Origin: Owenia fusiformis
Taxonomy: Eukaryota; Annelida; Polychaeta; Sabellida; Oweniidae
NCBI GenBank assembly: GCA_903813345.2
Contig: CAIIXF020000011.1
Coordinates: 13,809,754 to 13,873,753, forward strand
Direction: 5' to 3'
DNA length: 64,000 nucleotides
The position numbers were made by a program, and so were the translations under genes. The stretch's first letter is position 1; every line of letters begins with the position of its first letter. Under the pieces are notes generated by a model, which saw only the letters and a list, made by a program, of their open reading frames with translations, did not search any database and was not told the DNA's origin. Shown here in pieces: positions 53,501 through 59,500 of the stretch.

Positions 53501-56500
53501 AATTATTCTTAATGGTAAAACAGAATTTGCTGCTACTGCTGAAAATTATCATGGTTTATTTCAAGATTTTTTTTCATTTTCTGAACATTATCTGAAATAA
53601 CAGCAAATAATGTACCTGCTCCACTTGGTCCTAAAGTCATCATTCCATGTCTGACTCTCTGTGTCTCAAACAACTGGATCAGTTTAAGTACCCATGGTGG
53701 ATGGTTAATAAGTCCATGCTCTTGTACCTGGTGATCTATAGCAGATTCTAACTCAGGATATCTAGGTGAGAAGGGTCATTGAAAATAAATGAGATGGCAG
53801 TGTCGGTGTCAGTTATTGAATTGTATCATCACATGAGTTTGCGATATGGAACTATTTTAAACATAATTGTGAATAGAATTAAGCAAGACAAGCTTAAAAT
53901 TATCCCTGTAAGAAGCTACATGCTGCAGTTGGTAAGAATTCACATATTTTGTAATTCATTTTCCGCACTATGAATATACACCATCTAAAGGTGTTGCTTC
54001 ATTTTATCTATGTGCTCTTCAGTTATTAATAAATATAAACACATTAAAGTTCATACCCAGCTTTATCCAGTGTCATTCCTGGGAAAAGATCATCAATGAG
54101 AGACATGAACAATGGTTCATCCTCATCGACCAACTTTGACAGGTTCATATCACGCAGGATACGCATCATAATGGACTGCTCCGTGTCATTGGGGTTGCCA
54201 CGTTTGAAAGCTCCCAGGGTTCTCAGCACGGACAGGATGTTACGGAGACCAAAGTCATAATGGACTTGCTTTGTCAACTGCTCCTCACAGAGTTTATAGA
54301 GAGTGAAGAATTTCTTTGATAATGCCTGAATTTGAAAAAATGTGAGAATATCTGAAATGTGGATCACATCAAGGGAGGAATGTAATGAATTAATAATATT
54401 CAAAATATCAACCTCAATGGGGTAAATACTTTTAAAGGGAAAGGGACTAGCTTTGACACCATTTTGTTACATTTGGGAGTACATTCGTAATATCAACATA
54501 TGTGTTTCATGAGGGTTATGTTTTTTACATCAATTTTTTCAAACTAAACACGGGGAAATCAAGCTTTTCCGGTGCTCCTGGTTAACAACAATTACCCCAC
54601 CTTTTAAAGTAACTTTACCCTATGATGTAATAATTTCACCATGGTACTTACCACATTCTGTTGGAAACCACAGCTAGCCAACTTAACCCTCATGATGATC
54701 TGTCTGTCAGGTACCATCATAGCACATGTTCTGAAGTTGATCTTCAAGTTCTCTGGGAGCTCCTGACGTCCAGCGTACCCAGGGTTCTAAAGGAGGAAAA
54801 TGATTAAAAAAATAAAAAATAAATAATATTGTGAAACATGAATACAGTATGAAAAGTTATTTCATTGTATATTTCAATGTGAACATAGTGAGATACATCG
54901 TTTTAGTCATTATACAAGAAATTAAATGGACACTGGCAAGCTAGTCTTGGATCAAGGCTCTGGAACACCCTCCAGATCTACTTCACAAAGTCAAAAGGGC
55001 TTGAAGAAAGACCATGTATATGAAGCATCTTGTTCAAAGTTGTTTAACACACATATTGGTAATGGGTCTTATATATTTACCATGGTCAAGAAGAGACCAA
55101 ACTCTGGGTCCATACTGACAACATCACCATCAGTGAATATGAACTGATTTTTCCTTTCCTTCTTGCATGTTAAAACGATGGCAATCTGTTGGGCTGCCAC
55201 TGATAACACAGGCAAGTCTATACGATTGAACTCATCAAAGCAACCCCAAGCTCCAGACTGAGCAAGACCTGTCAATCGAAATAAAAATTTGATAATTTGC
55301 TATATGGACAATACAGGCACATATCAATACCTAAAATCAATAGCTAAACAATAGTGATACAATATACAATTCTGAAATTACCAGTTGTACTGCAATTAAA
55401 TCAAAGCTTCATTTTCTGAAACCAAACTCCAACCAAATTAAATGATAAAATATTAATTTCAATTTAGATATATCTACAGCAAGACCCTCCCCCCTCATTT
55501 TATAAACCCCTTACCTTTATAGATTCTTCCTAGACCTCTGAAGTCCATCTGATCAGAGCAGTTGAACACAACAACATATTTGCCAAGACATCTACCCATG
55601 TCCTTGGTTGTCTCTGTCTTGCCAGTTCCTGCAGGTCCTGCGGGTGCAGCACCCAAGGACATACTCAGGGCCTGAGACACTGTGATATAGCATCTATAAG
55701 AAATCAACAATTTATGACCATTTGTAAAAATTGGATACTTGTATAACTTGTTTTAAATATAGCATCTGTAATACACGTATATTGTGTGATTAATGATTGC
55801 AATTTGAGAATAAATTGGAGAGGTTATGATTTGCTGAAAGGAAAGTTTTTAGACAAAAAAATCATTTATCATAATTGAAATGATTAAAGTATTTTTTTGT
55901 ACACAGTACTAGCCTTTAAACTTGACCTTATGTCTGATTAAAGGGCTGCAATCAAAAATCTAGTGAAATAAATTACTCAAAAATTATTGAGACCTGGACT
56001 AAAAAGTCTGTCAGTACAATACTTGTCAGTCAAATGTGTAATGACAAGTCTATCAGTACATACCTGTCAGTCAAAGGAGTGATGACAAGTCTGTCAGTAC
56101 ATACCTGTCAGTCAAAGGAGTGATGACAAGTCTGTCAGTACATACCTGTCAGTCAAAGGAGCGATGACAAGTCTGCCAGTACATACCTGTCAGTCAAAGG
56201 AGTGATGACAAGTCTGCCAGTACATACCTGTCAGTCAATGGAGCAATGACAAGTCTCCCAGTACATACCTGTCAGTCAAAGATGTGATGACAAGTCTGTC
56301 AGTACATACCTGTCAGTCAAAGGAGTGATGACAAGTCTGTCAGTACATACATGTCAGTCAAAGGAGTGATGACAAGTCTGTCAGTACATACATGTCAGTC
56401 AAAGGAGTGATGACAAGTCTGTCAGTACATACCTGTCAGTCAAAGGAGTGATGACAAGTCTCTCGGTACATACCTGTCAGTCAAAGGAGTGATGACAAGT

Positions 56501-59500
56501 CTGTCAGTACACCCAAGGAACTCATTCTGGTAGCTGAAGTCAACATCTGTAATGCTAATGAGGCAAGTGTCTGTGTCTTCCTTGAAGTAGAACCTTGACT
56601 GCTTCAACCATTCAAAGTCATTCACAGACTTGATGTGCATCTTCAGCTGAAAAAATAAACATTGTTAAATGTAGTAGGATCTAAATTGTATCTACATATG
56701 TTCATGCTTATAGACATCCTATTTTTGAAAGAAAATTTTGCCTGGTATACAATTTGTAAAAAACTCACAGATTCAAATTTGCATGAGTGACATGTTCTAA
56801 AATCAATTGAAGAAAAGCAAAACCTTTTAAAAATGCAAGAAAAATTCCAAATTAAAAATGCAATGCTATACAAAAATGGCATAGATGAATACAAACGAAG
56901 ATTCAGAAATATTCTTTCACTTACCAGATCATCAAAGATATCCTTTTGATGGACATGAATGGTGACAAGTGTCTCAAACTTTGTTCTCTCCATCTTCGTC
57001 AGCTCTGTAGTTGTCATGTCAATGAGGTCATTCAGGATGTCTCTGAACTTCTCTGCAGTTGTCTGCATCACTTTCTTGTCAACCCTGGCACTCTGGAGTG
57101 CAGTCTCTGCATCCCTAGTCCACAGCATCTGGATACCTAATAGACCCACCTATAGAAAAAGATAACAATAAATGGTTTATAAAGAAGAAAACACAAATAT
57201 TGAGATACCAATGAGCTTTGACCACAGTAGCTAGTGGACAATTTGAAAGTAATTAGTCCATTATGATATAGACCTACCCACCCATAGGAAATGGTAAAAT
57301 GAAAAGGTTGATAAAGAAATATAAGTATTAAGACACTTGTATTAATATAGGGACTCATGCTTTTAATAAAATATATTGTTTGTGTAAGGGTGTTTGACAT
57401 CAATTTCTATTATCAAATACCAAAAATTTATAAAATATTTGCCATCAGGGGGACATACCTGTGCTGGGAACATGTTTTCAAACTCCATCAGTTTGAAGCT
57501 TGGGTCTTGGATTGTAACAGAGGCAGTTCTGATGATGCCATGGACAGATTTTCTGGACTCTGCAAGGAGATCTCCCAACCACTGTTCAACGTTGCCCTGA
57601 AATATAAAATAAATGCAAAAACATAACCGAAGGAAATACGGCAAAAAATATCTTAGAATATCATTGGAATGAAAATCATGATTTCACTTTCCCAAAAAAT
57701 CAGGTCCTGCTTTGTCAACTTTGACCCAAAATCATTCAGAATGGTGAAAAACTGCATGCTTTTGATAATTTTTTTACCAAGGCAAGAATGGCCCGAACCC
57801 CCCCCCCACCTTGGCTATGGCTATAGGCCTAGACGCAGTTGCAATGTTTTAAAAAAATTCTTCCTGTATGTTGATGCATCAACATTTTGTCGAATGGAAC
57901 TTTGCAAAGATAAATTTCATAAATTTGAAATCTAGAGTGTTTGCTTTCGAAATCAAACTAAATATTAATAATTAACAACCTGAAGTCAAACCTATCAATC
58001 GCCACACTAATTTACAAACAATTGACATAAAATTGGTCATACATACTTCAAAACATCATCAATAATTCCACTTGATAAGATATAAACACTCATACTTGAC
58101 AAAGTGGCAAGCTATTAGAATGTAAAGAGATATATATTACAGTCAAAAAGTGTGTATGGAGGGTAAAGTGGTTTTAAATTGTTCACTACATGTTTATATT
58201 CAATAGACAAGATTATTGCATGCACTTTTAATATTCAACTATTAAAACTTTGCACTGACTCCATTTGTCACTGGGACTACTGATTACTTTTAATGAATAA
58301 AACTGAATAAAAAAATGTTTTACTGGCCAAAATTGTTCAGATTAGCAGGTGTTCACATTTCAAGTTTTTTATTAACATGTAAGTCAATGGGAGAAAATAA
58401 TTTTGGGACCCAGAAAAAGTGTTCCCATTGAAAGGTGTTCTGATTAGAGATATTTGGATCAACAGGTTTCACTGTACCATTGTATACATAGCAGATAGCA
58501 CATACTGTAGTGTGTTTAAAAGGCCCTTACCTGTGCCATTACAAAGTTCTCAAGGTCCACTTTCTCTCCCTCCTGAGACACCACAGCCAATATCTGGTCA
58601 TAGTTCTTCTCATGGAATACCACATTCTTTGTGTTGTCAAACACACTCAGTAAGTGAGCCTGAAATTTAAAGATGGGGTATGGTACACCTGAGCAAAATG
58701 TTCCAAAATGTTACTTTTCCATTTATTTTTAATCAATAGTACACCAAGACAAAATAACATGAATTAAGGTAAAGTTTTTTTCTTCCTTTCCTTAAATGAA
58801 CTAAATTAAGACCAACTATTTTCTGTCAATAAAAGATTACCTGGATCGTGTGAGAGTCACTGGCCTGTCCAAGAATCTCAAGTAAAGCAGGGTCGGAAAC
58901 AAAGAAAAATCTTGGGAAGATCAAGCGTTTCTTCTCAAGGTATCCTGTCAGAGACTTCTGACAGACCTCCAGTTGCTCCAATAGATGGGGTAACAGTTGT
59001 GACAGAGTGTCATCACCAACGCAACATTGTACAACATTTGTGGTCTCATGGGCCCTCCCCATAATCTTAATCCATGATTTGTCAATATTTTGGAACCGCT
59101 TGGCTTCCTGGAATCAAAAGCCATATTGTTGTGCATTAACATGACTCAAAGAATTGATAAAATTTCAATTCTTAGGTTATTATTATGACAGTTGTATTCT
59201 GTAAATGTGCTCAATTGATAAGTATAAAATTATCAAGTTCTTGGTTTTAAACCTTCTCCTTGAACAACAATAGAAGTCATTTGAGAAAAGCATACCACAT
59301 TTTCTCACCTTATAACCACTGAGAGGGTTACACAATGGTATAATAGCACAATACTTGTCAGAAAAAGAAACAGGTGCGTACCTGTGGTAATTGTTTGGCA
59401 ATGTCTCCACCCACAAATACAGCCTCGAGATATATCCAGAGATTCTGTACAATCAACCAATTCTCAATGATCTCTGTGGTGCCAGTTAGCTTCTGGACCC

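What the first reader, a model, noticed from the sequence alone, without database searches (positions are those of the whole stretch)
56004..56514. Splice donor of a dynein exon multiplied about twelve times in tandem
A 41-bp unit made of the last ~33 coding bases of exon 13 plus its GTATGT donor is repeated through 0.5 kb of the adjoining intron. Every unit shows a strong potential donor. The unit is not a multiple of three. The exon frame extended past the first donor reaches a stop within about a dozen codons, so use of the distal donors would give a truncated product. The motor domain starts in the next exon, so donor choice here decides whether a functional ATPase is made. The array could be neutral slippage, or a decoy field that tunes splicing.
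Basis: partly seen in the sequence, partly recalled or inferred. Interest (0 to 1): 0.85.

Follow-up and report, generated by a model that had tools for sequence, protein, structure and literature searches.

The report
Minisatellite copying a dynein splice donor
A short repeat that copies the end of a cilia-motor exon together with its splicing signal sits in the next intron; it is real, but it belongs to a known kind of repeat seen in lancelets and in the human CBS gene, and is most likely harmless DNA slippage.

Summary
On the minus strand a DNAH5-like outer-arm dynein exon ends at 56474. Its last 33-38 bases plus donor CAG|GTATGT are repeated 12.4 times with period 41 through 470 bp of the 780-bp intron. 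Nine of 12 units have an intact donor, not every one. Every distal donor would meet the same stop 10 codons on. The exon-proximal donor gives protein collinear with human DNAH5.

It is not unique. The same gene carries a second donor array (71 bp x3) and an acceptor array (111 bp x3.9), both with collinear protein. Of 21 minisatellites kept in sampled dynein genes, 8 copy a splice junction; 4 of 7 donor-bearing arrays fetched elsewhere lie at exon ends with protein homology. Such arrays are called 'mirages' in lancelets; human CBS has the same layout (31 bp, 16-21 copies).

Donor bases in the copies mutate like the rest of the unit (P=0.79). Six of 10 paralogs share the intron position, so the array did not create it. 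Best reading: neutral minisatellite growth from a junction, exon-proximal donor used. The host is a spiralian, probably Owenia fusiformis. No RNA was examined.

The parts
56474..56646 (-). Dynein exon (173 nt) that ends in the copied sequence; encodes [13 protein letters not shown]...[13 protein letters not shown], the start of AAA1
   Evidence: Limits; protein collinear with human DNAH5 (8j07) and 9fqr chain I3; Pfam AAA_6
56004..56511 (-). Minisatellite of 12.4 x 41 bp that spans the exon-intron junction; unit TGTACTGACAGACTTGTCATCACTCCTTTGACTGACAG|GTA
56471..56511 (-). Unit 1, the coding copy and the likely true donor (GT begins at 56473); identical to the array consensus
56020..56470 (-). 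Units 2-12, intronic copies: 8 of 11 with CAG|GTATGT, 2 with CAT|GTATGT, 1 with CAA|GTATTG
55694..56473 (-). Intron of 780 bp, of which the array fills 470 bp
55510..55693 (-). Next exon with the AAA1 P-loop GPAGTGKT; start 55693 after TTATAG; the other end is approximate (edge of a homology segment)
40017..40231 (-). Second junction array in the same gene: donor array, 71 bp x 3.0, exon end ...VVNTMGEFQ|gtttgt
   Evidence: joined protein collinear with DNAH5; Pfam AAA_8; next exon begins at 39598 after TTTTAG
51412..51840 (-). Third junction array in the same gene: acceptor array, 111 bp x 3.9, ttacag|GGTGGCTAATGAGC
   Evidence: joined protein aligns through the junction with 9fqr chain I3 and DNAH5; no Pfam hit for the shorter peptide

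Best explanation
A junction-spanning minisatellite ('mirage'). A segment covering the last exon bases and the start of the intron was duplicated in tandem, probably by slippage or unequal exchange between two copies of TGTAC 41 bp apart, and then grew to about 12 copies inside the intron. The outermost copy is still the coding exon end and is under protein constraint. The spliceosome most likely keeps using the exon-proximal donor, and the other copies leave with the intron. Shown: anatomy, collinear protein, stop codon, shared intron position, recurrence elsewhere. Inferred: the slippage origin and the donor used.
For: Array and junction. Protein continuous across the exon-proximal donor with human DNAH5 and 9fqr. 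Donor bases in the copies mutate like the rest (5/99 vs 16/352, P=0.79). Of 10 dynein paralogs found by the ITPLTD motif, 6 break at the same base, judged by eye. Two more junction arrays in the same gene, one at an acceptor. Eight of 21 minisatellites kept from 34 stretches (170 kb) copy a junction. Four of 7 fetched donor-bearing arrays lie at ends of exons with Pfam or PDB homology (amidase, liprin-alpha, copper ATPase, Phe-tRNA synthetase). Published precedents.
Against: No RNA or read data, so use of donor 1 rests on protein collinearity. The test for selection on donors is small. Some counts lean towards junctions being favoured: 8 of 21 against 2.9 expected (P=0.003), weaker without the flagged window (5 of 17 against 2.2, P=0.05; P=0.22 if exon edges are undercounted 1.5-fold). 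Tandem CAGGTAAG triples exceed their reversed control 5.4-fold (339 vs 63) while single copies exceed it 1.14-fold; 74 of the 100 listed rows are one array, and without those 74 the ratio is still 4.2. Counted by array, in the listed part of the genome, the excess is not significant (18 of 24, expected 14.7, P=0.11). The CBS report suggests that such arrays may not be fully silent.
Confidence: 0.8

Rival explanations
1. Decoy field or rheostat: the 8 intact copied donors compete with the real one. A share of transcripts keeps one or more units, meets the stop and is degraded, so copy number tunes the amount of outer-arm dynein.
For: Eight copies have the same computed U1 duplex energy as the real donor (-9.7 kcal/mol). 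All distal donors give the same early stop. More repeats of the CBS exon-13/intron-13 VNTR are reported to go with lower CBS activity (a review's sentence; primary paper not held).
Against: No sign of selection to keep or remove the donors (small sample). Lancelet Adh, TnC and globin arrays are reported to splice normally. Arrays also occur at acceptors and in unrelated genes, which does not suggest a dedicated dynein switch.
Confidence: 0.12
2. Intron in the making: tandem duplication of an AG|GT segment creating a new intron, as in the Rogers model.
For: Units carry AG|GT, and lancelet mirages have been proposed as sources of introns; a potato case is published (abstract).
Against: Six of 10 dynein paralogs break at the same base, so the intron most likely existed before this array.
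Confidence: 0.02
3. Recursive-splicing ladder: each ...GACAG|GTATGT is both an acceptor and a donor, so splicing from donor 1 to any intact copy rebuilds the same exon end and donor, and the intron can leave in pieces with no change in protein.
For: AG abuts GTATGT in the intact copies, and the sequence upstream is moderately pyrimidine-rich (read).
Against: No branch-point or RNA evidence. The intron is short (780 bp) and needs no relay. The layout is a by-product of copying an exon end that finishes in CAG.
Confidence: 0.03
4. Assembly artefact.
For: Tandem arrays are often misassembled; a lancelet mirage appeared wrongly assembled in a draft genome.
Against: Units differ by ordered substitutions, the array is only 508 bp, the search gave one full-length match in the assembly, and arrays of the same form occur in other genes. 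Copy number may still vary between haplotypes.
Confidence: 0.02

Closest known systems
Lancelet (Branchiostoma) 'mirages': Adh3, globins BflGb6 and BflGb9, TnC, PGBD5 (PMC3087553 and PMC3902484, passages read)
   Same: Minisatellite-like tandem copies of an exon-intron boundary, at donors or acceptors; splice signals in many copies; coding copy at the edge
   Different: Another part of the animal tree and another gene. The lancelet papers report RT-PCR, haplotype and somatic length variation, none of which could be examined here
Human CBS 31-bp VNTR, c.1444_1467+7(16_21) (PMC2630376 passages; PMC5188458 one passage)
   Same: By its name the unit is 24 exon bases plus 7 intron bases, repeated 16-21 times; units are all 31 bp with single-base differences
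   Different: Known to be polymorphic, with a reported dose effect on enzyme activity; unit and sequence unrelated
CBS 844ins68 (PMC2630376, passage)
   Same: Tandem duplication of an intron 7/exon 8 junction with a strong choice of one copy by the splicing machinery
   Different: A single duplication; the passage says donor sites, but a cited title and the junction named indicate 3' splice sites
Intron gain by tandem duplication (Rogers model; potato RdRp, PMC4974935, abstract)
   Same: Tandem duplication across an intron-exon boundary
   Different: There a new intron arose; here the intron position is shared with paralogs
Earthworm metallothionein first-intron minisatellites (PMC12783039, passages)
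   Same: Intronic minisatellites in annelid genes
   Different: The passages seen do not say that the repeats copy a splice junction

Membership tests
Mirage (junction-spanning minisatellite) | Tandem units that include both exon and intron bases of one junction | tested here: met
   33-38 exon bases plus 3-8 intron bases per unit
Mirage (junction-spanning minisatellite) | Minisatellite-size unit with several imperfect copies | tested here: met
   41 bp x 12.4, 93%; published units 10-160 bp
Mirage (junction-spanning minisatellite) | Splice signals present in many but not all copies | tested here: met
   9 of 12 units with CAG|GTATGT
Mirage (junction-spanning minisatellite) | Outermost copy is the real exon edge and the protein is not interrupted | tested here: met
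   Collinear with DNAH5
Mirage (junction-spanning minisatellite) | Normal mRNA splicing | not testable with these tools
   No RNA data
Mirage (junction-spanning minisatellite) | Length instability between haplotypes or somatic cells | not testable with these tools
   One assembly, one full-length match
Intron gain by tandem duplication | Intron absent before the duplication | tested here: not met
   Same break in 6 of 10 paralogs (by eye)
Regulated poison-donor (unproductive splicing) element | Copied donors under selection | tested here: inconclusive
   5/99 donor changes vs 16/352 elsewhere, P=0.79; no sign of selection, but a small sample
Regulated poison-donor (unproductive splicing) element | Distal donors used in RNA and giving decay | not testable with these tools
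   Stop in every distal product by sequence; no RNA data

The most novel reading that the evidence does not exclude
Junction minisatellites are a pervasive, copy-number-variable layer of splice-site duplication in this spiralian genome: three of them in one outer-arm dynein gene, others in further dyneins and in housekeeping genes. Their copy number shifts the share of productive mRNA, as suggested for the human CBS VNTR, so natural length variants form an allelic series for splicing fidelity.
Probability: 0.12. Interest if true: 0.7.

Novelty: new member of a known kind. Interest (0 to 1): 0.35.

Why it matters
In the papers found here, mirages come from lancelets, with the human CBS VNTR as a look-alike. 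Finding them repeatedly in one spiralian genome suggests that they are a general outcome of minisatellite growth wherever it happens to start across a splice junction. They also give natural experiments on how the spliceosome chooses among a dozen near-identical donors in a row. If the copied donors are ignored, as in lancelets, exon-proximal choice is very robust; if not, array length would be a hidden expression variable.

Tried and rejected
Intron birth was rejected because paralogs share the intron position. A dispersed repeat family was rejected: besides the full self-match the genome search gave three weak partial hits, two of them at paralogous dynein exons; the third, on C6, was not examined. 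Amphioxus as host: a GFP-family search found nothing, but its controls were silent too, so it says nothing; COX1 gave nothing. Hox genes with UbdA-like and Lox5-like tails and 12 chromosome-size contigs point to a spiralian (the meaning of the motifs is recalled).

Whole-genome donor-in-tandem counts were mixed. CAGGTATG: 264 triples vs 131 reversed-control triples (2.0), single copies 18,129 vs 8,121 (2.2). CAGGTAAG: 339 vs 63 (5.4), single copies 13,493 vs 11,845 (1.14). Match counts are clustered within arrays, and listings stop at 100 rows. Counted by hand as arrays, in the part of the genome that the donor listings cover (C1 to about C3:7 Mb; C1 to about C4:3 Mb), it was 9 vs 3 for each word, not significant. 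I therefore claim no enrichment and no absence of it.

The first merge of loci used a wrong orientation (mismatches printed) and was redone; one search stopped on a wrong option and finished the work. Before counting junction arrays I dropped 32 of 53 TRF arrays (period under 20 or fewer than 2.5 copies). Junction status of the 21 kept was judged by eye; two of the 8 are weak (C12:24488758 copies only about 8 exon bases; the first C9:7125433 array is cut by the locus edge and its exon peptide was recognised by eye). The 7 fetched donor-word arrays are 7 of 9 that I saw in the 100 rows listed of 264; the other 2 looked like coding repeats and were left out.

Two residues at neighbouring junctions, not at the arrays, were typed as read through rather than spliced: V at the start of the array exon in the query (the spliced reading is L) and V after PKML in the query (correct residue not settled). 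They do not change the alignments' reach.

Paper searches for mirages outside lancelets: no paper; 5 papers, two opened in part; 2 papers, one opened in part. They showed no further animal case; the CBS papers describe the human look-alike. The searches were few, so this is no proof of absence.
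Full report
WHAT IS THERE. The window is part of a 498-Mb genome (contig C11). A dynein heavy-chain gene runs on the minus strand from beyond 64000 to about 26340. An exon of 173 nt (56646-56474) ends ...CTG ACA G|gtatgt. Its last 33-38 bases plus the first 3-8 intron bases form a 41-bp unit repeated 12.4 times (56004-56511, 93%, no indels). The intron is 780 bp (56473-55694) and the array fills 470 bp of it. The next exon (from 55693) carries the AAA1 P-loop.

WHICH GENE. 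The joined translation of the neighbouring exons aligns end to end, without a gap at the array, with a 4730-residue chain of 9fqr (I3, labelled CFAP57 in the listing but plainly a dynein heavy chain by its match; E 1.2e-139) and with human DNAH5 of 8j07 (E 2.3e-137). The exon-proximal donor is therefore the one that gives the conserved protein. Reading past it gives ten residues ([10 protein letters not shown]) and a stop; every more distal donor includes that stop, so all give the same truncated product. The period not being a multiple of three is thus irrelevant to the outcome.

THE UNITS. Unit 1, the coding copy, equals the consensus. Eight of 11 intronic copies keep CAG|GTATGT with the same computed U1 duplex energy as the real donor (-9.7 kcal/mol); two have CAT|GTATGT (-3.1) and the innermost has CAA|GTATTG (-3.4) (the U1 sequence is recalled). 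Changes in the 9 donor bases of the copies number 5 of 99, in the other 32 bases 16 of 352 (Fisher P=0.79): no sign that donors are being kept or removed, though the sample is small. Units 7 and 12 are the most divergent, with 5 changes each; unit 12 is the array's inner edge. A 5-base TGTAC at both ends of the unit fits slippage as the start, but this is inference.

AGE OF THE INTRON. Ten dynein paralogs of this genome were found by the ...ITPLTD motif. Read by eye, 6 break at the same base (...ACAG or ATAG followed by GT), 3 nine bases later and 1 not at all. An eleventh, on C8, which the motif pattern missed, also reads through this point. The intron position is therefore most likely older than the array. 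In the sister paralog on C3 the same intron holds another minisatellite (89 bp x 14.1) starting 15 bp after its donor but not copying it.

NOT A SINGLE CASE. The same gene has a donor array at 40017-40231 (71 bp x 3) and an acceptor array at 51412-51840 (111 bp x 3.9). Joining the exons across each gives an alignment without a gap at the junction: E 4.2e-51 to DNAH5 and E 2e-41 to 9fqr I3. In 34 stretches grouped into 17 dynein loci (170 kb, 38 kb of it from the window) TRF gave 53 arrays; of the 21 with period 20 or more and at least 2.5 copies, 8 copy a splice junction (4 donors, 4 acceptors). Of 7 donor-word arrays fetched from C1-C3, 4 lie at ends of exons with homology: Amidase (Pfam, E 1.5e-7), liprin-alpha-2 (PDB, E 4.1e-4), P-type copper transporter (PDB, E 9.7e-5) and Phe-tRNA synthetase (Pfam class II core F, E 4.3e-16); 3 showed no recognisable exon.

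CHANCE OR PREFERENCE. If seeds fall at random and purely exonic ones are purged, 2.9 of 21 would span a junction; 8 do (P=0.003). Without the window, which was chosen because of its array, it is 5 of 17 against 2.2 (P=0.05), and P=0.22 if exon edges are 1.5-fold undercounted. The whole-genome donor-word counts disagree between two words at match level, and by array are not significant (18 of 24 against 14.7, P=0.11). Whether junctions are favoured is open; they are not visibly avoided.

WHAT IT WORKS LIKE AND WHAT IS KNOWN. [quoted passage not shown] PMC3902484, passages). Human CBS has a 31-bp VNTR written c.1444_1467+7(16_21), that is 24 exon bases plus 7 intron bases repeated 16-21 times (PMC2630376, passages); a review says more repeats go with lower CBS activity (PMC5188458, one passage). 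Earthworm metallothionein genes have first-intron minisatellites, but the passages seen do not say that they copy a junction (PMC12783039). The array here meets the four mirage features that could be tested on DNA.

HOST. Twelve contigs of 32-62 Mb hold about 477 of 498 Mb (lengths, sum). Two Hox genes have UbdA-like tails and one a KLTGP tail (meaning recalled), which points to a spiralian. Owenia fusiformis is reported with 505.8 Mb and 12 chromosome-scale scaffolds (PMC9977687, passages). This fits, but is not proof.

VERDICT. Its value lies in showing that the kind recurs in another part of the animal tree, and in offering long runs of near-identical donors for testing splice-site choice.

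Noticed in passing
L006 2226-2438, minus strand (C8:1636026-1639535): A dynein-2-like heavy chain (name recalled) has a donor array of 30 bp x 7.1 (...GGSPFG|gtaagt) before its P-loop exon. Period 30 keeps the frame open through the array (GKLKLGESPF-like repeats), so distal donors would add 10-residue blocks rather than a stop.
   Followed up: partly
L038 1-296 and 616-944 (C9:7125433-7128849): One dynein intron has a donor array (100 bp x 3) at its 5' end and an acceptor array (91 bp x 3.6) at its 3' end.
   Followed up: partly
G000:C3:28754932-28756184: The sister paralog's homologous intron holds an unrelated 89 bp x 14.1 minisatellite starting 15 bp after the donor.
   Followed up: no
L068 from 1501 (C3:5627727-5630832): An array found by a control word also looks like a donor array (...GATCATGTG|gtaagtatggac, 49-bp period) after an open exon-like stretch; no Pfam hit for its peptide.
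   Followed up: no
G000:C1:53780640-53784944: CAGGTAAG-bearing tandem array of about 48-bp period over some 4 kb.
   Followed up: no
window 13965-15451: Large minisatellite, 112 bp x 13.2, whose unit holds CCATGG palindromes, outside the dynein gene.
   Followed up: no
window 48522-48776, + strand: ORF with a RING-finger-like cysteine pattern (CKNC...[10 protein letters not shown]...CPIC) on the strand opposite to the dynein gene, inside its span (pattern recognised by eye).
   Followed up: no
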